A stretch of DNA of 64,000 nt from Rhizophagus irregularis. Its lineage: Eukaryota > Glomeromycota > Glomeromycetes > Glomerales > Glomeraceae. The notes under the pieces are model-generated. The model was not told the origin of the DNA and did no database searches. It saw nothing but the letters and a program-made list of their open reading frames with translations. The stretch covers positions 3,270,001 through 3,334,000 of the forward strand of contig NC_089451.1 of NCBI RefSeq assembly GCF_026210795.1, written 5' to 3'. Every line of letters starts with the position of its first letter. The first letter of the stretch is position 1. Made by a program: the position numbers and the translations under genes. This document shows positions 45,756 to 57,854 of the stretch, in pieces.

Positions 45756-46370
45756 TGTAATGCCGTAGTATACCTAGTAAATTTATTAATTGTGGGGCGC
45801 AGTATTACATTTAGTCTTAGTGTATAAAATTTTAACTTATTTTTATTTTTATTTTAATTGGACCGAGAAGTCGTTAAACTAATAATCACATGGATTAAGG
45901 TAATTGGTCCGTGATGACCTTAAACTATTAGTCACGAGATCTAAGGATAAATGAAGATCCGAAAGATACTAAATTGAATGAAATCAAGTGATCTGAGGTG
46001 TCAAGTGATTAATTTGTTGATCACTACGTTAATATTATAAATCATAATTCAGGAGTTCATGATGATCAAATGGATACAAAATTAAGTTAATGGAAATACT
46101 TTAAAACAATGGAAATACTTTAATAATTTAAATCCATGAATCGAAATTATGAATTTAGTTACACAAAAACAAACATAAAAGGGCGTGAAGATCACCTTTT
46201 GGAAAGGGGAGAGAGAGAAAACTGGACGAATTTTGTTATGAATTATTTATTTTATTATTTGATGTTATTAAACCAAGCATATTATTGTATTTATTTATAT
46301 TATTAATAAAGAGTCATTTTGTTAATACCTGAGGTGGCAAACATAATTCTCTATGGGCTCAGGTGTTACA
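45756..46370 (+). repeat. 5' LTR, 615 bp
   Basis: Starts TGTAATGCC and ends GGTGTTACA (TG...CA). An AATAAA at 46305-46310 lies about 60 bases before the end and is a likely polyadenylation signal. It read the same as the 3' LTR wherever compared by eye over its full length. Confidence 0.95.
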
Positions 46371-46954: not shown

Positions 46955-47155
46955 GTAGGGTAATTCTGTGTGAACTCAATTGAGGTTTTCTGTGTGATCA
47001 ATTGAGAATAATTCTGTGTGAACTCAATTGAGGTTTTCTGTGTGATCAATTGAGAATAGTTCTGTGTGAGCTTTTTCTGTGTGAACTCAATTGAGGTATT
47101 CTGTGTGATCAATTGAGAATAGTTCTGTGTGAACTTTCAAAAACAATTCTGTGTG
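46955..47155 (+). repeat. Leader tandem repeat based on TTCTGTGTGA
   Basis: TTCTGTGTGA occurs nine times, most often in a 48-base compound unit that also contains CTCAATTGAG and GATCAATTGAGAAT. It lies in the untranslated leader, about 530 bases before gag. Confidence 0.85.
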
Positions 47156-47680
47156 AGGGTACCCAAGAAAAATCATGATTAACGTTAACAAAAATTAAAA
47201 TAATGTTTGCTGGACAAATATATTCAAGGAAAGTTATTAAAAATTAATAAGGATATAAATGATAAGAGATTTTGTAGCGTAGTAAAATTATATAAAATGA
47301 CAATACAGGTGTCGAGATTATTAATTAAAGATTATCAAAGCACAGTAAATTTTAGGATATAATAGAATTGGAGGCGTAGTAGGAGCATATGAAAGAGGGA
47401 GATTTGAATCTCCCACTTATTAAATGAATTGTTGACACCGAGGAAAGATACATCAGTCTTGGAAATACAACAAATAATCGGACAAATCAAATATGGATTC
47501 ACACTTCAACCTTAGGTTGGAAAATTTTATGGAATATAAATTTATTTGTACAAACCTGTAAACTACCATACTCAGTAATGAACAAATGAGGTAAAGGCAA
47601 GCCCAGTATAGGTCAAATAAAATATAAAAGAAGGATAAAAAGTAAAAAAATGTGAAAATTTTTAGAGAATTTTATTAAAA

Positions 47681-50600
47681 ATGGAATGGTACCATGTTTG
47701 GAACGCTGGATATATAAACCATAAACAAGAACACGACCTAGGAGTGATAGAACCAGAGGAATGTTTAGCATGTGAAATATGTAACCCAATAGAAAGAGAA
47801 GTATCAGCGGCATTCAAGAAATTTTGGGATGCTTTATTTAAATTTGAGGATACAATACTAATGTACAATAATGTAACACATAAAGAATTATTGAATTTAT
47901 TAAGTATGGACAATAGAGAAAGGGAGGATACAATACATAAGGGAAAATGTAGGAATATAGTAGATAGAATAATTGAATCAATAAGGTACAGACAACAACC
48001 AAAAATGAAGGAAAAAGGATTGAGAATAATAATTGTAGTAATTGTAAGGGATTGTATTGAAGGAAACTTGGAAAATGAAGTATTTGATCGATTAATAGGA
48101 TGTCCAGAAATAATGAAACATGGATACATTTTAGAAGATTGGGATGTTAAAAATAGATTTCAAAAGTTTTGGGATTGGTACAACACGATATTGGAAAATG
48201 AAATGAAAGCAATACATGTTAAGAAGTTAGCAATAAAGTTATTCAGGGATTTATTATATGAAGAAACAGAAGATCTGGTGAGGGGAGAAAAGGTAATTGA
48301 ATTGTTACTCCAGATAGAACATCAGAATAGATGTGAGGCAGACACTCAAGAAGGAAAGGATGCATGGAAGAGATTGATACAGAAAGTAAGACAAAGATTT
48401 ATTGACACCAAACAATTTACAAGGGAACCTGAGGACCCAGAAAGTGATAGTCCTGAAAGTTATGAATTAGAGGACAGTGATGGTAGTATACATTATGAAA
48501 TAAAAATAGAGGACAATGTCGAATGGACAGTGGAATTATTAAAAAGAAAAATTGAAGAAATGGGTGGAAGGTTCACTGACAAAGATATACAAAGAATGTG
48601 GGACCTAAAAATAAGGATAGAATTAATATTAACAGAAGACTTTTTAGGTACATTTTTCGAATTAATGAGACTAAGTGATGAAAAATTAAAAGATGAAATA
48701 AATGAATGGTTAACAAAAGAAACATTAATATGTGGAAATTGTAGGAATAGAAAGTTACCTGATATGATAGCAGACATTGGACAATGTAAAAATTGTGAAC
48801 AAAAAGAATTATTAGAATTAAAGGATGACTTAGAAAAACTAGGATACGAATTAAATGTGTCAGAAATAGAGAGAATAAGAAAATTCAGGATAAGCAATAG
48901 TATAATATTAACAACGGAATTTATGGAAAAATATTTTCAGGAAATTGATATGAATGACAAAGAATTAAGGACAAAATTATATGAATGGATCAATGAAAAT
49001 ACCACATTTTGTGATGAATGTGGAATAAGATGGATGAACAATAAATTTGACGAAGGAAAAACCAAGTGTAGGGATTGTGAGAATGACGAAAATGAAATTG
49101 ATATCAGGGTCAAAAGATTAAAACAAATATGTGATGATAATAAAATAGAAATAACTAATGGAGAGTTATTGAGGTTAATCAGTATGGGATATACTGATGG
49201 AGAAATATTGGATCAAGAATTTATTGAAATATTCCAAGGAAATAAAAATGATTTGGAGAAAAATTTAAGGCGGATATTAAATAAATTTCTAAAACAGCAA
49301 GCTGGAATTGGGGATAGTGAAAGCAGTGGAAATGAATCTGATAATGAAAAATCTGATGGATCTGAAAATAAATCAGATGGATCTGGAAAAGACAGAGAAA
49401 TTTTAAATCCAAATGATACCGATAACAATGAAAATTTTGAAGAACCTTATGAAGAAAACATTATAAATAGACCTGGTTTTGACTCAAGTGAAAGTTCAGA
49501 ATCAAATTCTGAGGATAAAAGCGAAATATCTGATTATAATATAGAAAATTTATTTGAAACACCTTTAACACCACCGATACCACCAATCCCACCAATAGTA
49601 CCAATAATTATGGGAGCAACAAGAGCTGAAGTAAGGGAAGATTTTAGAGCGGCTTTACTAGCAGCAACAGGACATGATATAGGAGGTAATTGGGCTGGAT
49701 TAGTCGCAGCCAACCCATTAGCAAATGCAATTGAGGATGCAGGAAATGTAGCTGGAGGAATAATTAGTATGCCACAATTTTATGGAAAGGAAGAAGAAGA
49801 CGTAAACGATTGGGTAAGACAATTTGAAACAGCATTTACTGCCATAGGAAAAGCAGCAGGAGTAAATGGAACTAGACAAGCAGCAATGGCAGCTACCTGT
49901 TTAAAAGGTGCAGCAGCACAATGGTATAATGAAAAGAAGGAAGCAAACAATGGTCATTTGGTAAATTGGCAAGATAACGATAATGATAATGATTTAAAAC
50001 ATAGGATTAAACAAAGATTTACCAGGGAAGATGTTAGAAAAAGGAAAATGTTAGAATTAAGGAAAATAACACAAGGAGTAAATGAAAATGTTGAGGCATA
50101 TACGATAAGGTTTAGACAAATATTAAGGATAGCTACCAGAGGCCATGCATTAGATGATGAATTACAAGTGGATAATTATATCGAAGGATTAACACCAACA
50201 TTGGGATATCAAGTCAGAAGACAAAACCCAGCAAATTTAAATGATGCAGTGAATACAGCAAGGAGAGAGGAGGAAGCTACTAATGAATTAATAAGAAAGA
50301 CACGTGGTATACCAGTTAGTACCCAAAGAAAAGGAATCGATATACAAGATGACAAGTCAAAGAATATATTTGAAAAACCATTGGAGAAAAATTATGAGGA
50401 TGACCTTGCCGACATGTTTAAAAAATTAGAGGTAAAATTAGTAAATCAACTTGGAGGGCAAAGGAGACCACCAAACAATAATAATAGACAAGGACCACCA
50501 CCTCGAGCATGTTATAATTGTAAACAACCAGGACATTATGCAAATGAATGTAGGGTAAATAATGGTCAAAGAAACTATGGAAGACCAAATAATCAAAATT

Positions 50601-51268
50601 ATAATAGAAGATCAAATAACTATAATGGAAGACCAAATAACCATAACAGACCACCAAACCACCAAAACAATAATCGAGGATTCAATGTAGTGGAATATGA
50701 TAATTATAATGACCAATATGACCAATATGATTATGATAGTCAGGATTATCAGGATAATTATGATCAAGGATATAGTTATGACGACCCGTATTATCAAGAT
50801 AATGATGTAACATTTAACCATGTTGATCAAGATTTTTATACCGGTGAAAGACAAACGAGAAGTAACATAAAAAATAGGTCAAGTAATCGAGATATAGATA
50901 TGGAAATTGACCAAGAACAAACACGAAGAAGGAATAATAAATATGCAAGCCAAGAGGAAAGGGCAGCAGCATTACCAAAAAGAGGATTCACTGATGAAAG
51001 TCTGAGGAAGGCACAAGAAGTAAGGAGAAATAATAATACATGTGGAAATTGTGGACAAAGAGGTCACTATGCAAAACAATGTAAAAATGAACGTGTTAAA
51101 GGTATCCATAGGACAAGCGCATTTCAGAGGAACACACCAGAATATAACATAATAGAGGATCTGAAAAATACCAGAGCAAATGCAACCTTTTCACAAATTA
51201 TAAACATGAGTCCAGAGCAAAGGAAAATATATTATGAAGGAATGAGAAGGTATCCACAAACAGATTGA
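47681..51268 (+). CDS. gag: Gag polyprotein with long N-terminal extension
   Basis: 1195 aa. Residues from about 644 onward are a standard retrotransposon Gag: a helical core with Trp-Val-Arg-Gln-Phe-Glu-Thr and Ala-Ala-Ala-Gln-Trp-Tyr, then a basic Asn/Arg-rich region and two CCHC zinc knuckles (Cys944-Tyr-Asn-Cys...His...Cys and Cys1121-Gly-Asn-Cys...His...Cys). The first 640 residues are not typical. They hold a Cys-Leu-Ala-Cys-Glu-Ile-Cys cluster near 30 and about three related units of roughly 90 residues (from about 285 to 545). The first two units each end in a four-Cys cluster (Cys351-x2-Cys...Cys-x2-Cys372; Cys444-x2-Cys...Cys-x2-Cys466). An acidic Ser/Asp/Glu linker and a Pro-rich segment follow. 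Gag forms the particle and binds RNA; the extension's role is unknown. The stop is TGA followed by CTA, with protease in the same frame beyond. Confidence 0.93.
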   Translation: MEWYHVWNAGYINHKQEHDLGVIEPEECLACEICNPIEREVSAAFKKFWDALFKFEDTILMYNNVTHKELLNLLSMDNREREDTIHKGKCRNIVDRIIESIRYRQQPKMKEKGLRIIIVVIVRDCIEGNLENEVFDRLIGCPEIMKHGYILEDWDVKNRFQKFWDWYNTILENEMKAIHVKKLAIKLFRDLLYEETEDLVRGEKVIELLLQIEHQNRCEADTQEGKDAWKRLIQKVRQRFIDTKQFTREPEDPESDSPESYELEDSDGSIHYEIKIEDNVEWTVELLKRKIEEMGGRFTDKDIQRMWDLKIRIELILTEDFLGTFFELMRLSDEKLKDEINEWLTKETLICGNCRNRKLPDMIADIGQCKNCEQKELLELKDDLEKLGYELNVSEIERIRKFRISNSIILTTEFMEKYFQEIDMNDKELRTKLYEWINENTTFCDECGIRWMNNKFDEGKTKCRDCENDENEIDIRVKRLKQICDDNKIEITNGELLRLISMGYTDGEILDQEFIEIFQGNKNDLEKNLRRILNKFLKQQAGIGDSESSGNESDNEKSDGSENKSDGSGKDREILNPNDTDNNENFEEPYEENIINRPGFDSSESSESNSEDKSEISDYNIENLFETPLTPPIPPIPPIVPIIMGATRAEVREDFRAALLAATGHDIGGNWAGLVAANPLANAIEDAGNVAGGIISMPQFYGKEEEDVNDWVRQFETAFTAIGKAAGVNGTRQAAMAATCLKGAAAQWYNEKKEANNGHLVNWQDNDNDNDLKHRIKQRFTREDVRKRKMLELRKITQGVNENVEAYTIRFRQILRIATRGHALDDELQVDNYIEGLTPTLGYQVRRQNPANLNDAVNTARREEEATNELIRKTRGIPVSTQRKGIDIQDDKSKNIFEKPLEKNYEDDLADMFKKLEVKLVNQLGGQRRPPNNNNRQGPPPRACYNCKQPGHYANECRVNNGQRNYGRPNNQNYNRRSNNYNGRPNNHNRPPNHQNNNRGFNVVEYDNYNDQYDQYDYDSQDYQDNYDQGYSYDDPYYQDNDVTFNHVDQDFYTGERQTRSNIKNRSSNRDIDMEIDQEQTRRRNNKYASQEERAAALPKRGFTDESLRKAQEVRRNNNTCGNCGQRGHYAKQCKNERVKGIHRTSAFQRNTPEYNIIEDLKNTRANATFSQIINMSPEQRKIYYEGMRRYPQTD

Positions 51269-51808
51269 CTACAAGAATCAATGAACAACATTGAAGCAGA
51301 ACACTTAACTGCATTAAGGGGTAAATTAATAATAAATCAAGAATTAAAGGACGTAATGTTTGATACAGGAGCAGCAGTAAATGTAATAACTAGTCAGATA
51401 ATGGATGAAATGGACCTAAAAATTGAGGAACCAAGTACAGTAAGATGTGTGATGATAAATGAGGATAAATTAGCATCTAGGGGTACCACGACAATATACA
51501 TACAATTTGGGGATAAGGAAATACCCATTAAGGTTGAAGTAATTGATTCAGGAAAAAACGAAATTGTGTTAGGAAATGGAGTATTAGATATGTTCAAAGC
51601 AAATATAGATTACACAGATAAAACAATAATAATTAGAATAAATGATGAAACTATGGATATACCAGTAAAATACACACAAAGGACCATTAAAGGGTTTGAA
51701 GAAACATTTGATGAAGAGGAAATATTAGAAGAATTATACCAGGATGAATTGTATAACATATATGAAGATGACCATGAAGGTCAGGAAGATGAAAATTTTA
51801 AAATATAA
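51269..51808 (+). CDS. pro: Retrotransposon aspartic protease
   Basis: Directly after the gag TGA and in the same frame; the first ATG is at 51281. The active-site triad Asp-Thr-Gly-Ala lies in Met-Phe-Asp-Thr-Gly-Ala-Ala-Val-Asn, and a hydrophobic strand plus Val-Leu-Gly-Asn-Gly corresponds to the second part of the fold. The C-terminal tail is very acidic. It cleaves the Gag and Pol precursors. Translation is likely by readthrough of the UGA-CUA stop; internal initiation at 51281 is the alternative. It ends at TAA 51806-51808. Confidence 0.88.
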   Translation, partial: LQESMNNIEAEHLTALRGKLIINQELKDVMFDTGAAVNVITSQIMDEMDLKIEEPSTVRCVMINEDKLASRGTTTIYIQFGDKEIPIKVEVIDSGKNEIVLGNGVLDMFKANIDYTDKTIIIRINDETMDIPVKYTQRTIKGFEETFDEEEILEELYQDELYNIYEDDHEGQEDENFKI

Positions 51809-53283
51809 GTCTTGGTCAGAATGATACTGAAGAGACGATAAAGAAGCACAAAAATGACCATGAAAAATTTACTGAAAAATTTAAAGTAGGGGACATAACC
51901 AATGAACAAAAAGGTAAATTAAAGGTATTAGTAGAAAAATATAAGGATATATTTGAGTACGATGGTGAAAAATATAATAGGACAAACCTAGTAAAACATG
52001 AAATCAGATTAAAAGGGGGTACTGAACCAATAGCCCAAAAGAGGTACAAAGAAAATGATGAAAAAGGTAAATTCATCAGAAAAGAGGTCGACGAGATGAT
52101 AAAATTGGGAAAAATTAGAGAATCTAGAAGTCCATGGTCTTCACCAGTGACTTTAGCAGGGAAAAAGTCGGGAAATTATAGATTTTGCATCGACTATAGA
52201 AAATTAAATAAAGTTACAATAACAGATGCATATCCATTACCGAGGATTGATGAACAACTAGAAAGGATAAGTTCAGGAAAATGGTTTACCAGTCTAGATT
52301 TAGCATCAGGGTTTAATCAGATAGAAATGGCTGAGGAAGATATTGAGAAAACAGCATTTATATGCTCAGCAGGATTATATGAATATAATGTCATGCCATT
52401 TGGGTTAACAAATGCGCCTGCAAGTTTTCAAAGGTTAATGGATAAAGTATTAAAGGAGTACCTAAATGAATTTGTGATAGTATACATTGATGATATAATG
52501 ATATATTCAGAAAATTTTGAAGACCACCTAAAACACATAAAGTTAGTATTAGAAAAATTAAAGGAAGCCAGTTTAATACTAAAGTTAAAGAAATGTATAT
52601 TTGGAAAAACAGAAGTAGAATTTTTAGGACATGTAGTTGGTAAAAATGGATTAAAACCAAGTCCAGGAAAGGTTGAAAAGATACAAAAATTAACAGCACC
52701 TATAAATATAAAAGGTGTAAGGTCAATATTAGGATTATGTACGTATTATAGAAAATTTATTAAAGACTTTTCAAAAATAGTAAAACCAATAACGTCTTTA
52801 TTGAGAAAAGATGAAAAGTTTGAATGGGGCATCAAACAACATGAAGCATTAGAAATATTAAAAAGGAAATTAACCGAAGAACCGGTGTTAAGACAACCAG
52901 ATTGGACAAGGAAATTTATATTAATCACAGATGCTTCAGGAATAGGATTAGGGGCAGTGTTAGCTCAAAAAGATGATAAAGGTCAAGAATACGTAATAGA
53001 ATATGCCAGTAAAAGTTTAAACAGGACAGAACAAAGATGGCCAATAACCGAACAAGAATGTTATGCAATTGTATGGGGAATACAACATTTCCATAAATAC
53101 TTGATCAATAGAAAATTTGAGGTAGTAACAGACCATGCAGCTTTGAAGGGATTAATGACTGCAAAAGTACCAAAAGGAAAGAGATCAAGATGGGTCATGG
53201 AATTAGAACAGTATGATTTTGAAATAACTCATAGACCAGGAAAAGAAAATAAAAATGCAGATGCCTTATCAAGGATAATATAA
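51802..53283 (+). CDS. pol: Reverse transcriptase and RNase H
   Basis: The frame is open from 51802, -1 relative to protease. The first ATG is at 52096, but conserved pre-RT sequence upstream (Lys-Tyr-Lys-Asp-Ile-Phe and His-Glu-Ile-Arg-Leu) shows that translation should start earlier. Reverse transcriptase motifs: Ser-Pro-Trp-Ser-Ser-Pro, Arg-Phe-Cys-Ile-Asp-Tyr-Arg, Ser-Leu-Asp-Leu-Ala-Ser-Gly, Met-Pro-Phe-Gly-Leu-Thr-Asn-Ala-Pro and the catalytic Tyr-Ile-Asp-Asp (52483-52494). RNase H follows with Thr-Asp-Ala-Ser, Glu-Gln-Glu-Cys-Tyr-Ala, Thr-Asp-His-Ala and Asn-Ala-Asp-Ala-Leu-Ser. No clear slippery heptamer is seen at the protease-RT junction. It copies the element RNA into DNA. Confidence 0.93.
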   Translation, partial: NISLGQNDTEETIKKHKNDHEKFTEKFKVGDITNEQKGKLKVLVEKYKDIFEYDGEKYNRTNLVKHEIRLKGGTEPIAQKRYKENDEKGKFIRKEVDEMIKLGKIRESRSPWSSPVTLAGKKSGNYRFCIDYRKLNKVTITDAYPLPRIDEQLERISSGKWFTSLDLASGFNQIEMAEEDIEKTAFICSAGLYEYNVMPFGLTNAPASFQRLMDKVLKEYLNEFVIVYIDDIMIYSENFEDHLKHIKLVLEKLKEASLILKLKKCIFGKTEVEFLGHVVGKNGLKPSPGKVEKIQKLTAPINIKGVRSILGLCTYYRKFIKDFSKIVKPITSLLRKDEKFEWGIKQHEALEILKRKLTEEPVLRQPDWTRKFILITDASGIGLGAVLAQKDDKGQEYVIEYASKSLNRTEQRWPITEQECYAIVWGIQHFHKYLINRKFEVVTDHAALKGLMTAKVPKGKRSRWVMELEQYDFEITHRPGKENKNADALSRII

Positions 53284-53316: not shown

Positions 53317-53556
53317 ATGGAACAGGTGGTAAGAAATACAAATCATAAAATAAAGGATATAATCAAAAATTTAGAAGGTATAACAAAGGAATTAAACAGG
53401 ATAAATTATAACTATAAATACAAAGCCGAAAATTTTGAGGATAGTGAGGAAAGACCACTAATTTTGGAAACCCAAAAGGAAATATTACAAATAGAGGTGA
53501 TATTAAGTAAAGTAAACAGGCTAAAATTATCAGAATTATGTAAAAATGGGACCTAA
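53317..53556 (+). CDS. Small ORF between RNase H and kinase-integrase, unrecognised
   Basis: 79 codons, in the same frame as reverse transcriptase but after TAA stops at 53281 and 53293. The product is Lys/Asn/Glu/Leu-rich and predicted helical, possibly coiled coil; no family is recognised. Its last bases overlap the start of the next ORF by 11 bases (ATG at 53546, stop at 53554-53556). This arrangement is compatible with termination-reinitiation. It could also be a linker of a formerly continuous polyprotein. Confidence 0.5.
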   Translation: MEQVVRNTNHKIKDIIKNLEGITKELNRINYNYKYKAENFEDSEERPLILETQKEILQIEVILSKVNRLKLSELCKNGT

Positions 53557-54922
53557 AATAATAATCATATGTGGAGTTGACGGTACTGGAAAAACATTCA
53601 TTGTAAATAAACTTATAAAAGAATTTAAAAAAGTAGGACAAAGTGTGAGGTTTAACACCTTTAAAAGGAGAAGAGAGGACAATGATAAGTATAAAATGCC
53701 AAAGAAAGGTATAGAATGGGAATTCAGGAAGGAAGTTGTTGAACAAATCAACAGGAGAATGGAAGAACATGATAATGAGGATTGGTTAATATTGGATAAA
53801 AGTCCTTATAGTGAATATTTTTATCAACAAACACCATCATTCGACAGAGGATACATAACAAGATATGAGAATCACCTATTAGAGAAGGAAATATTTAGGA
53901 ACAAAAAGATAATCGATGAATCAATAGTGATATTTTTAGAAAATGAAAAATGTTGGGAAAATTACAAGGGTAGAGAATATTCGAAAAAGGATCAAGGACA
54001 TAAGACATCATACCCATTATTAAATGAAGAGAGATATATGGAAATGGTGAAATCATTTAAAGAATGTCAAGATATTTACGAAGGAGAAAAATATGCTAAT
54101 ATTAAAATATCAAATAATGACACAGATTGGGAAAGAGTATATAATAAAATAATAGAATTAGATGGAGATAAACCACCAATAGAGGTTAAAAATGTTGAGA
54201 TTAAGGATAACATCAGAGTAACTGATGGTAAAAAGTATATTGAGAAAAATGGTAAAAACATCAGAATAATAGAAGACTTTGAAAAGATGGGAGCACTATA
54301 TTTAGCTCACGGTCATGAATTATCGGCACATATGGGAATCAAAAGTACTTATGATAATTTAAAAGATAAATATTATTGGGAAAATATGCTGAATGATGTT
54401 GAAAGATATGTAAGGACATGTGATGAATGTCAAAGAAGAGGAAAACCACAAGGGAAAAATGAATTACACCCAATTAAAGTAGTAGAACCATGGTATCAAA
54501 TCGGGATTGACTTCGTTGGACCATTGAACACGACAGCAAATGGTAATAAATACATCATAGTAGCAATGGATTATTTTACAAAATGGCCAGAAGCCAAAGC
54601 AGTAAAAGAAGCAACTGCCAAAGAAGTATCAAAATTTATTTATGAAGACATCATTTGTAGACATGGATGTCCAATGAAAATATTGAGTGATAGAGGAAGT
54701 CATTTCAATAATGAAATGATTAAGGAATTAATGGAAAAATTCAAAATTAAATGGAATTTTTCTACAAGTTATCATCCAGAGACAAACGGACTTGTTGAAA
54801 GATTCAACCGAACATTAGGTCAAGCATTAGCAAAGTTATCAACTAAGGATGATTGGGATCAAAAGATAGCACCCATATTATTTGCCTACAGAAATAAAAA
54901 GCACAGTTCAACAAAAATTTGA
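53546..54922 (+). CDS. Thymidylate-kinase-like domain fused to integrase
   Basis: 458 codons. Residues 1-205 form a P-loop kinase: a beta strand (Lys-Ile-Ile-Ile-Ile-Cys), Walker A Gly10-Val-Asp-Gly-Thr-Gly-Lys16-Thr17, then Asp84-Lys-Ser-Pro-Tyr-Ser-Glu-Tyr-Phe-Tyr-Gln, which lines up with the Asp-Arg-Tyr...Ser...Tyr-Gln nucleoside-binding motif of dTMP kinases, and a Tyr-Lys-Gly-Arg lid-like segment near 140. Residues 205-300 lead into the integrase HHCC finger (His257, His262, Cys292, Cys295). The integrase core has Asp322, Asp382 and Glu418, the last two 35 residues apart. The kinase would convert dTMP (or a related monophosphate) to the diphosphate. A TGA at 54920-54922 ends the ORF within the usual integrase sequence; the C-terminal part continues in frame beyond it. 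Confidence 0.88.
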   Translation: MGPKIIIICGVDGTGKTFIVNKLIKEFKKVGQSVRFNTFKRRREDNDKYKMPKKGIEWEFRKEVVEQINRRMEEHDNEDWLILDKSPYSEYFYQQTPSFDRGYITRYENHLLEKEIFRNKKIIDESIVIFLENEKCWENYKGREYSKKDQGHKTSYPLLNEERYMEMVKSFKECQDIYEGEKYANIKISNNDTDWERVYNKIIELDGDKPPIEVKNVEIKDNIRVTDGKKYIEKNGKNIRIIEDFEKMGALYLAHGHELSAHMGIKSTYDNLKDKYYWENMLNDVERYVRTCDECQRRGKPQGKNELHPIKVVEPWYQIGIDFVGPLNTTANGNKYIIVAMDYFTKWPEAKAVKEATAKEVSKFIYEDIICRHGCPMKILSDRGSHFNNEMIKELMEKFKIKWNFSTSYHPETNGLVERFNRTLGQALAKLSTKDDWDQKIAPILFAYRNKKHSSTKI

Positions 54923-55327
54923 CCATTTTATCTGACATATGGAAGAAATGTACGGACAATAATGGATGAAGATATCAAAGGAATCAACCTAAGTGACAGA
55001 ATAGTTGGATTATTAGAAGAATTACCAAAAATCCGATATGAAGCCAAAGAACAAATATTAAAATCTCAAATAAAACAAAAAGAGTATCATGACAGAAAAA
55101 TAATTAAAGAACATACCTTTGGAATTGGAGATAAAATATTACTTTATGATAAAGCCAAAGCACAACAATTATCTGGAAAATTGGAATCAAAATGGTTGGG
55201 ACCATTTTACATTCATGAAATACTACCAAACGGAGCCTACAAAATTAAAGATATTAAGGGTGTAATCAAGAAAACACCTGTAAATGGAGAATTATTAAAG
55301 ACTTACCATACACCGATGAGTAAATGA
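54923..55327 (+). CDS. Integrase C-terminal region after an in-frame TGA
   Basis: Same frame as the kinase-integrase ORF. It begins Pro-Phe-Tyr-Leu-Thr-Tyr-Gly-Arg, the conserved segment that normally follows directly on the integrase core. It continues with a Gln-Lys-Glu-Tyr-His-Asp-Arg helix, a Gly-Asp-Lys-Ile-Leu-Leu beta strand, Lys-Leu-Glu-Ser-Lys-Trp-Leu-Gly-Pro-Phe-Tyr and a Lys-Thr-Tyr-His end at TAA... position 55325-55327 (TGA). An internal ATG is at 54962. As written it is separated from the core by the TGA at 54920. Confidence 0.8.
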   Translation, partial: PFYLTYGRNVRTIMDEDIKGINLSDRIVGLLEELPKIRYEAKEQILKSQIKQKEYHDRKIIKEHTFGIGDKILLYDKAKAQQLSGKLESKWLGPFYIHEILPNGAYKIKDIKGVIKKTPVNGELLKTYHTPMSK

Positions 55328-55609: not shown

Positions 55610-55649
55610 AAATTTAATGAGGGCATTAAATTTTTATGCGGGGGATAGT
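55610..55649 (+). promoter_or_regulatory. Stem-loop and polypurine tract before the 3' LTR
   Basis: AAATTTAATG pairs perfectly with CATTAAATTT (55610-55633, 4-base loop). It is followed by a GGGGGA core (55640-55645) and ATAGT, then the 3' LTR. The G-run is the likely plus-strand primer site, although it is short. Confidence 0.7.
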
Positions 55650-56264
55650 TGTAATGCCGTAGTATACCTAGTAAATTTATTAATTGTGGGGCGCAGTATT
55701 ACATTTAGTCTTAGTGTATAAAATTTTAACTTATTTTTATTTTTATTTTAATTGGACCGAGAAGTCGTTAAACTAATAATCACATGGATTAAGGTAATTG
55801 GTCCGTGATGACCTTAAACTATTAGTCACGAGATCTAAGGATAAATGAAGATCCGAAAGATACTAAATTGAATGAAATCAAGTGATCTGAGGTGTCAAGT
55901 GATTAATTTGTTGATCACTACGTTAATATTATAAATCATAATTCAGGAGTTCATGATGATCAAATGGATACAAAATTAAGTTAATGGAAATACTTTAAAA
56001 CAATGGAAATACTTTAATAATTTAAATCCATGAATCGAAATTATGAATTTAGTTACACAAAAACAAACATAAAAGGGCGTGAAGATCACCTTTTGGAAAG
56101 GGGAGAGAGAGAAAACTGGACGAATTTTGTTATGAATTATTTATTTTATTATTTGATGTTATTAAACCAAGCATATTATTGTATTTATTTATATTATTAA
56201 TAAAGAGTCATTTTGTTAATACCTGAGGTGGCAAACATAATTCTCTATGGGCTCAGGTGTTACA
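55650..56264 (+). repeat. 3' LTR, 615 bp
   Basis: Same length as the 5' LTR and no difference was found by eye. It is followed by CCGG and then, 91 bases later, the ATG of the BTB-TLDc gene. Confidence 0.95.
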
Positions 56265-56355: not shown

Positions 56356-57854
56356 ATGGTTGATAATAAACTTTTGACAAAATTATCACAAAATTTACTT
56401 GAAATTTTAAACGATGAAGAATATTATGATATTACAATTGAAGTTGGTAACGACCCTTACGTAAAAATATTTCGTGCTCATATGGTTATTTTAAATTATC
56501 GTTCTCCTTATTTAAGAAGAATTTTATCAACAAATAAAAAGAATAATGATGGAACTTTGACAAACATTAAATTACCAAATATTTTACCCGAAATTTTTCA
56601 AATAATTTTAATGTAAGATAAATAAAATTTCGTTCATCATGTGGTCATGCGATAATTATATATTTTTTTACAACTTTTTAATTATTTTTAAATTATTTTA
56701 GGTATATTTATGGAGGAAAACTCTCTTTAGAAGAATATGATATTTCAGATATCATTAAAATTTTAGTTGCTGCTAATGAGCTCAGCCTTCAAGAATTAAT
56801 CCCCTATTTAGAATCCTTTTTAATTGAAAATAAAAAAAATTGGATCGAACAAAATATTGACTTGATATATCAAACTAGTTTTGGAAACGATTCTTTCTTA
56901 GAACTTCAAAAATATTGTACTAATTTAATTATTAAAGAATCAAATAAAATATTTAATTCTCCGAATTTCTCTTCGATTCCAGAAAAATTATTAATCACGC
57001 TTATTCAAAATCATCAAATAAGTGAAATTCAAGTTTGGGAGCATGTAATTAAATGGGGACTTGCACAAAATCCTGAACTTTCTTCTGATCTTACAAGCTT
57101 TTCAAAAGATGATTTTAACACTTTAAAGAAGACGTTACAAAAATGTATTCCTTTAATTAAATTCCGTAATTTAACTTCCAAAGAATTTTTGAAGAAAGTA
57201 AAACCATATAAAAAAATCTTACCGAAGGAATTATATGATGATTTGTTAGAATATTTTTTGGATAATGATTATGATCCAAACAAAAAATCAGAATCTCGTA
57301 CTATTGAAGAGATTAAATCAAAAAATATCGATTCTAATATCATTACAAATAAACATGTTGAAATAATCTCAAAATGGATTAATAGATTAGAAATTACCGA
57401 CAAATTAGCAAGTTCGTATGAATTCAAATTATTATACCGCGATAGCGAAGATTCTGGTGAGCTGTCTGAAAGGATTAATAAATTTCATGAAGTTTGTGAT
57501 AATCATTCCCAAACTGTAACAATTTTTAAAGTGAAGGACAGAAATGAGATTCTTGGTGGATATAATCCGATTGAGTGGAAATCTGATTATAGTTGTGGAA
57601 TTACCAAAGATAGTTTTATATTTTCTTTTAATAATGAGAATTACATTTTAAGTCGTGTAAAGAATGAAATGAGAGCTATAACTAATTATTCTAATTATGG
57701 TCCATCATTTGGTCATGATCTGTGTTTATTCTGGTTTTTTAATAATGACAGGAAAATCCATTGTGGTCAAAAATATTATGAAAAACTTAACAATGATGAT
57801 TCGTTTAATTTAGATTTTTTTGAGGTATTTCAATTGTGCAAGACTGATGATTAA
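56356..57854 (+). CDS. BTB-BACK-TLDc protein
   Basis: Two exons, 56356-56612 and 56702-57854, joined by a GT-AG intron, 469 aa. An N-terminal BTB/POZ domain (about 20-115) has Asp-Ile-Thr-Ile-Glu-Val and Phe-Arg-Ala-His-Met-Val-Ile-Leu, with Tyr-Ile-Tyr-Gly-Gly across the splice. A BACK-like helical region (about 125-215) includes Val-Trp-Glu-His-Val-Ile-Lys-Trp-Gly. A TLDc domain (about 303-465) includes Phe-Lys-Leu-Leu-Tyr-Arg, Ile-Leu-Gly-Gly-Tyr-Asn-Pro and Ser-Phe-Ile-Phe-Ser-Phe, with Gly-Pro-Ser-Phe-Gly near the end. BTB proteins of this type commonly serve as adaptors for CUL3 ubiquitin ligases; the target is unknown. An LTR retrotransposon ends 91 bases upstream, so the native promoter may be displaced and the LTR may supply it. 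Confidence 0.9.

What the first reader, a model, noticed from the sequence alone, without database searches (positions are those of the whole stretch)
53546..54922. Thymidylate-kinase-like enzyme fused to a retrotransposon integrase
Seen: one ORF begins with a full P-loop kinase signature (Walker A Gly-Val-Asp-Gly-Thr-Gly-Lys-Thr; Asp-Lys-Ser-Pro-Tyr-Ser-Glu-Tyr-Phe-Tyr-Gln; lid-like Arg) and runs in frame into an HHCC plus DD35E integrase. Known: nonprimate lentiviruses carry dUTPase between RNase H and integrase, which helps reverse transcription in cells poor in dNTPs. Inference: this element independently acquired a dTMP (or dNMP) kinase at the same position, to raise dTTP supply in an AT-rich genome. 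I am not aware of a described retrotransposon with this arrangement, but I cannot search.
Basis: partly seen in the sequence, partly recalled or inferred. Interest (0 to 1): 0.93.

Follow-up and report, generated by a model that had tools for sequence, protein, structure and literature searches.

The report
Retrotransposon carrying a nucleotide kinase
A large family of jumping genes in a mycorrhizal fungus carries its own small enzyme, resembling those that make DNA building blocks, inside the set of enzymes it copies itself with, and its mutation pattern indicates that the enzyme is being kept functional.

The parts
45756..46370 (+). 5' LTR, 615 nt, TGTAATG...TTACA
   Evidence: 615 of 615 positions identical to the 3' LTR; 4-bp flanking repeat CCGG on both outer sides
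47681..51268 (+). gag ORF, 1195 aa
   Evidence: Retrotrans_gag 44.4 bits, two CCHC stretches
51281..51808 (+). aspartic protease ORF
   Evidence: gag-asp_proteas 31.9 bits, RVP_2 29.1 bits, both over cut-off
52096..53283 (+). reverse transcriptase and RNase H ORF
   Evidence: RVT_1 143.8 bits, RT_RNaseH 126.5 bits
53317..53556 (+). spacer ORF (79 aa), overlaps the kinase ATG; not conserved
   Evidence: translated; shortened in L002 and absent in L006 (2 of the 8 copies aligned), where the kinase ATG is kept
53546..54160 (+). nucleotide-kinase-like domain (residues 1-205)
54161..54922 (+). linker and integrase (HHCC zinc binding, catalytic core), ending at a TGA in this copy
   Evidence: Integrase_H2C2 and rve matches; in-frame junction
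54923..55327 (+). C-terminal integrase remainder, same frame after the TGA
   Evidence: ORF 54962-55327; SH3_Tf2-1 15.6 bits, below its cut-off of 30; open frame of 598-615 aa in 23 of 31 copies
55640..55649 (+). purine-rich tract before the 3' LTR
   Evidence: gggggatagt read directly; role as polypurine tract inferred
55650..56264 (+). 3' LTR

Best explanation
The window holds a complete copy of a Ty3/Gypsy LTR retrotransposon lineage of arbuscular mycorrhizal fungi that has acquired a thymidylate-kinase-like nucleotide kinase. The domain sits between RNase H and integrase. It is made either as the N-terminus of a kinase-integrase protein (this family) or as the C-terminus of an RT-RNase H-kinase protein (sister families). 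The most likely mechanism is that the kinase travels with the Pol enzymes in the virus-like particle and phosphorylates a deoxynucleoside monophosphate, most likely dTMP, so that reverse transcription of an A-rich RNA is not limited by dTTP in slowly dividing hyphae or spores. Shown here: anatomy, copy number, predicted fold, conserved residues, purifying selection, conflicting trees that point to module exchange. Inferred: substrate, packaging, and the link to dNTP supply.
Against: The window's own domain scores 21.8 bits for Thymidylate_kin (cut-off 27) and 22.1 for TIGR00041 (cut-off 83.25). AAA_28 matches 21 of 25 relatives, one more than Thymidylate_kin, and many P-loop families match weakly. 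By sequence the best PDB matches of the family profile are FtsY. The DR motif reads DKS, whose Ser is also seen in deoxynucleoside kinases (recalled). dNK structures score as high as thymidylate kinases. The kinase is less constrained than RT in all four families. No expression, packaging or activity data. The host has its own thymidylate kinase and a deoxynucleoside kinase match, so the benefit is not obvious. Kinase-less Ty3-type elements are numerous in the same genome: of the 63 best RNase H matches, 1 has a kinase within 3 kb downstream.
Confidence: 0.62

Rival explanations
1. It is a deoxynucleoside (salvage) kinase that turns dT, dC or dA scavenged from the plant or from degraded nuclei into dNMPs for reverse transcription.
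For: Human dCK and dGK, Giardia dAK and AbmG are among the best fold matches, tied with thymidylate kinases. DKS-x-YS resembles the (E/D)RS-x-YS of dNKs (recalled). PF01712 matches 4 of 25 relatives, in P0011 over nearly its whole length.
Against: The invariant P-loop Asp is a thymidylate-kinase trait, lacking in dNK P-loops (recalled). Conserved Lys/Arg (K40, R41, R43) lie after the second strand, where dNKs keep a catalytic Glu (recalled); such a basic patch suits a phosphorylated substrate. The profile match to dNK is weaker (best E 1.2e-4 against 3.2e-7) and rarer. The host has its own dNK match.
Confidence: 0.2
2. The P-loop domain acts on nucleic acids or proteins: an end-polishing kinase for the tRNA primer or cDNA ends, or an ATPase helping integrase choose targets, as IstB does in IS21 (recalled).
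For: AAA_28 is the best Pfam match of the domain taken alone (27.2 bits, cut-off 27), and KTI12 and other P-loop families match at weak levels. In this family it is joined to integrase.
Against: The full-length predicted fold is of the dNK/thymidylate-kinase type. In the other families read it is joined to RT-RNase H, not integrase.
Confidence: 0.13
3. It is a passenger: a captured gene fragment carried along without function.
For: Some copies have stops or a changed P-loop: 2 of 48 loci with a stop in the domain, 2 of 47 covering loci with G15E. pN/pS is above that of RT in all four families and above that of integrase in two.
Against: pN/pS 0.10-0.24, in the range of integrase (0.09-0.22); invariant catalytic-type residues; retention across families and fungal species.
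Confidence: 0.03

Closest known systems
dUTPase-bearing Ty3/Gypsy elements of fungi and rotifers, and dUTPase retroviruses
   Same: An extra nucleotide-metabolism enzyme built into Pol, at varied positions, apparently gained independently (PMC2864245 and PMC5408684, passages read). Dut is said to lie between RT and IN in some vertebrate retroviruses (PMC5408684, passage).
   Different: There the enzyme is dUTPase (hydrolysis, removing dUTP); here it is a P-loop kinase (phosphoryl transfer). 'Kinase' has 0 occurrences in the main text of either paper.
Thymidylate kinases (PF02223, TIGR00041)
   Same: Fold, P-loop with acidic residue, spacing of the D(R/K)...S...YQ motif.
   Different: DKS instead of DR(Y/F/H); score far below the equivalog cut-off; stand-alone enzymes in the six records aligned, Pol domain here.
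Deoxynucleoside kinases (PF01712; dCK, dGK)
   Same: Equal fold similarity; DKS-x-YS near (E/D)RS-x-YS (recalled).
   Different: P-loop Asp, basic patch after the second strand, weak PF01712 match.
P0112, NUDIX-kinase protein of an unnamed metagenome
   Same: Kinase half 42% identical to the window domain.
   Different: Fused to a NUDIX hydrolase domain (24.8 bits, cut-off 21.1); no retroelement domain among its Pfam matches; genomic context not available.

Membership tests
Ty3/Gypsy LTR retrotransposon (Metaviridae) | Paired LTRs with TG..CA ends and a target-site duplication | tested here: met
   615-nt identical LTRs, CCGG on both outer sides
Ty3/Gypsy LTR retrotransposon (Metaviridae) | gag, protease, RT, RNase H, integrase, with integrase downstream of RNase H | tested here: met
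   Pfam matches in that order; a kinase stands between RNase H and integrase
Ty3/Gypsy LTR retrotransposon (Metaviridae) | tRNA primer-binding site matched to a tRNA | not tested
   Sequence after the 5' LTR was printed but not matched to a host tRNA
Thymidylate kinase (PF02223) | Score over the curated cut-off (27 bits) | tested here: not met
   Window domain 21.8 bits; relatives P0005 27.1, P0006 28.9, P0011 28.7 and P0043 30.2 reach it (4 of 15 proteins scanned there)
Thymidylate kinase (PF02223) | P-loop with acidic residue, G-x-(D/E)-x-x-G-K | tested here: met
   D12 and K16 kept in 47 of 47 loci covering them; same place as the thymidylate kinases
Thymidylate kinase (PF02223) | DR(Y/F/H) motif | tested here: not met
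   D84-K85-S86; K85 and S86 in 47 of 47 covering loci
Thymidylate kinase (PF02223) | Fold | tested here: met
Thymidylate kinase (PF02223) | ATP-dependent phosphorylation of dTMP | not testable with these tools
   Needs an enzyme assay
Deoxynucleoside kinase (PF01712) | Profile match over the cut-off | tested here: not met
   Not among the 25 matches listed of 26 up to E = 1 nor among the 15 up to E = 0.01 for the window domain; 4 of 25 relatives match, best E 1.2e-4; the one score seen was 21.0 bits against a cut-off of 27 (P0011)
Deoxynucleoside kinase (PF01712) | Fold | tested here: met
Deoxynucleoside kinase (PF01712) | Catalytic Glu after the second strand | tested here: inconclusive
   The segment reads NTFKRRRxD; no residue-level superposition was available
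dUTPase-bearing retroelement | dUTPase domain | tested here: not met
   None among the Pfam matches listed for six ORF queries of the element; stretches between ORFs were not scanned

The most novel reading that the evidence does not exclude
A reverse-transcribing element encodes and probably packages its own dNMP kinase, coupling dTTP production to reverse transcription inside the particle. The kinase is a swappable module of a whole clade of fungal retrotransposons, and the clade's A-rich (first-strand T-rich) composition reflects that supply.
Probability: 0.45. Interest if true: 0.87.

Novelty: new variant of a known kind. Interest (0 to 1): 0.77.

Why it matters
Retroelements have repeatedly captured dUTPase, which cleans the dNTP pool. 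A captured kinase that would make dNTP precursors is a different solution to the same limit on reverse transcription, and one that can be tested with a single enzyme and a P-loop mutant. Because related families with and without the domain live in one genome, and the domain appears to have been swapped between families, the system offers a natural comparison for how dNTP supply shapes retroelement success and base composition. It would also explain automatically named 'thymidylate kinase' proteins of metagenomes and AM fungi as retrotransposon parts.

Tried and rejected
Assembly chimera at 53500-54200: rejected. The whole ORF recurs in 31 places, and related protein records name R. irregularis, R. 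clarus, R. diaphanus and Glomus cerebriforme.

Recent capture of the host thymidylate kinase: not supported. The host gene (C13:3242213-3242981, minus strand) has a DRY motif and gave no tblastn match to the element's domains at E 1e-10.

Phage, viral or bacterial donor: none found. Phages: 7 records with weak partial matches, best E 0.3, none covering 80% of the query. Viral contigs: 0 confirmed relatives from 38 pattern matches with A2, and 0 from 3 with P0112. Genome contigs: 0 from 82. This shows absence at that sensitivity only.

FtsY/SRP as relatives (most of the top PDB sequence matches): rejected, because they cover only the P-loop and the residues before and just after it, while the fold search gave dNK and thymidylate kinases.

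dTTP excess as the cause of A-richness through G-to-A errors: the simple form does not fit. In kinase-bearing RTs it is C and T, not G, that are low.

Literature (one open-access library; no preprints, Repbase, supplements or most subscription journals): 'retrotransposon' + 'thymidylate kinase' + 'integrase' 0 papers; 'LTR retrotransposon' + 'thymidylate kinase' 0; 'retrotransposon' + 'deoxynucleoside kinase' 3, unrelated by title and abstract start. Wider searches were seen as listings only, in part: 20 of 23, 15 of 21, 12 of 228, 15 of 386, 12 of 1,213. Passages, not whole texts, were read of PMC8647823 (12 of 21 places), PMC2864245 (7 of 7), PMC5408684 (11 of 11), PMC3248453 (2 of 2) and PMC11075540 (12 of 17); none reports such a kinase in what I saw. 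'Kinase' has 0 occurrences in PMC2864245, PMC5408684 and PMC3248453; in PMC8647823 and PMC11075540 the passages shown speak of host kinase genes.

Foldseek 'pdb' and 'viral' searches never ran; the PDB comparison is VIA-align's second look alone.

Full report
WHAT IS THERE. The window is G000:C23:3270001-3334000, part of a 147-Mb, 32-contig genome. It is close to Rhizophagus irregularis: protein P0090, from an R. irregularis record, is 98% identical to the domain. Two 615-nt direct repeats without a single difference (45756-46370 and 55650-56264), with TG..CA ends and CCGG on both outer sides, bound a 10.5-kb element; a purine-rich tract precedes the 3' repeat. Inside lie gag with CCHC knuckles, aspartic protease, RT-RNase H, the reported kinase-integrase ORF, and a same-frame integrase remainder beyond a TGA. 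This is a complete, very recent Ty3/Gypsy insertion whose integrase frame is interrupted in this copy.

THE FUSION IS REAL AND REPEATED. The protein search of the genome gave 147 matches, a lower bound (452 candidates in the first look, 92 scored). Thirty-one of them, window included, cover the whole query (one from residue 2) at 97-100% identity; one has an internal TGA; the open frame is 598-615 aa in 23, 503-522 in 6 and 465 in 2. In 8 family copies aligned at the 5' junction, the kinase start (MGPK) is kept while the spacer before it varies, being shortened in L002 and absent in L006. This suggests a start codon of its own for the kinase-integrase ORF, although splicing was not tested.

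OTHER FAMILIES CARRY IT DIFFERENTLY. In diverged families of this genome (kinase 56-61% identical to the window for L024, L012, L013, L009 and L039) the domain is the C-terminal part of an RT-RNase H-kinase ORF, mostly 706, 777 or 779 codons long where intact. A stop follows, then a separate integrase ORF that begins MEE(D/E)xY in the four loci read (L009, L010, L012, L024). So the constant feature is position, between RNase H and integrase, not fusion to integrase. Of the 105 RT matches scored, which are those closest to the window's RT, 101 have a kinase match within 3 kb downstream on the same strand. Of the 4 others, one falls just outside the overlap limit I set, and three have a same-strand kinase match 4-15 kb downstream. 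Kinase-less elements are numerous too: of the 63 best RNase H matches in the genome (of 150 listed), 1 has a kinase match within 3 kb downstream. Two RTs taken from these are 57-58% identical to the window RT, and on a quick RT tree a branch with SH-aLRT 100 separates them from all 14 kinase-bearing rows. That is compatible with one gain, but two kinase-less rows are few.

SELECTION AND MODULE EXCHANGE. Mean pN/pS (Nei-Gojobori) of the kinase is 0.135, 0.111, 0.239 and 0.095 in four families (9, 9, 14 and 5 loci), against 0.03-0.08 for RT and 0.09-0.22 for integrase; the kinase is above RT in all four and above integrase in two. Residues D12, K16, R41, R43, K85 and S86 are unchanged in 47 of 47 loci that cover them (48 examined, 8 duplicate loci dropped); D84 is Asn in one, G15 is Glu in two, and two loci (L041, L043) have a stop in the domain. 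The kinases of the 779 family group with those of the 706 family and its kin (SH-aLRT 88-99 at the three nested nodes), although its RT and integrase group with the 777-type families (83-100 for RT, 98 for integrase, over nested nodes). Pairwise distances agree: L010 against L009 kinase dN 0.05, RT dN 0.23, integrase dN 0.29. I conclude that the kinase has been exchanged between families as a unit.

DISTRIBUTION. Three searches of a 5.8-billion protein set returned 32, 36 and 103 proteins (E 1e-3, 1e-3 and 1). R. clarus P0066 and P0099 join kinase and integrase zinc finger, but they are gene models that may include predicted introns. One relative, P0112 (42% identical), joins the kinase to a NUDIX domain, again of a nucleotide-hydrolase family, and may be nearer the donor. 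No phage, viral or prokaryotic relative was confirmed.

MECHANISM. The element needs dNTPs where its particle is. A kinase made as part of Pol could be packaged with RT and raise the local dTDP/dTTP supply. The coding strand is A-rich: 44% A and 25% T over the body, and A is 50-57% of third positions in seven kinase-bearing RTs against 37-39% in two kinase-less ones. The first cDNA strand is thus T-rich. This is a correlation with two comparators. It does not show the expected depletion of G, so I treat it as compatible rather than as proof. The host has its own thymidylate kinase and a dNK match, so any benefit must be local or stage-specific.

NOVELTY. dUTPase in retroelements is the known precedent (passages). 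In none of the listings (several seen only in part) or passages did I see a nucleotide kinase in a retroelement. Automatic labels such as 'thymidylate kinase' exist for single proteins. I rate it a new variant of a known kind: an LTR retrotransposon with an added nucleotide-metabolism domain of a type that I did not find described.

Noticed in passing
P0112 (unnamed metagenome protein, 393 aa, contig 6198 nt): NUDIX domain (24.8 bits, cut-off 21.1) fused to a kinase 42% identical to the window domain: a second nucleotide-related fusion and a possible lead to the donor.
   Followed up: partly
L010, L045, L014 against L009, L017 and L039: Kinase module apparently exchanged between families: the 779 family has 706-type kinases but 777-type RT and integrase; L039 has 779-type RT and integrase with a 777-type kinase.
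   Followed up: yes
G000:C28:1224011-1224604 (-): Strong deoxynucleoside kinase match in the host genome (112.4 bits, open frame 336 aa); as far as I recall such kinases are uncommon in fungi.
   Followed up: no
L025 (G000:C24:3288271-3288729): Thymidylate-kinase-like gene with an altered P-loop (GCEDTNTT) next to what looks like an HMG-box ORF (HMG box recalled, not tested).
   Followed up: no
window 46964-47161: Tandem repeats (units of about 22-63 nt, TTCTGTGTGAACTCAATTGAGG...) in the leader between 5' LTR and gag.
   Followed up: no
window 56356-57854: The element ends about 90 nt upstream of an ORF that looks like one of the expanded BTB-type genes of this fungus (BTB assignment recalled, not tested).
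   Followed up: no
kinase-bearing RTs against L059 and L060: Strong purine (A) bias of the coding strand, with C and T rather than G low, in the seven kinase-bearing RTs examined and not in the two kinase-less ones.
   Followed up: partly
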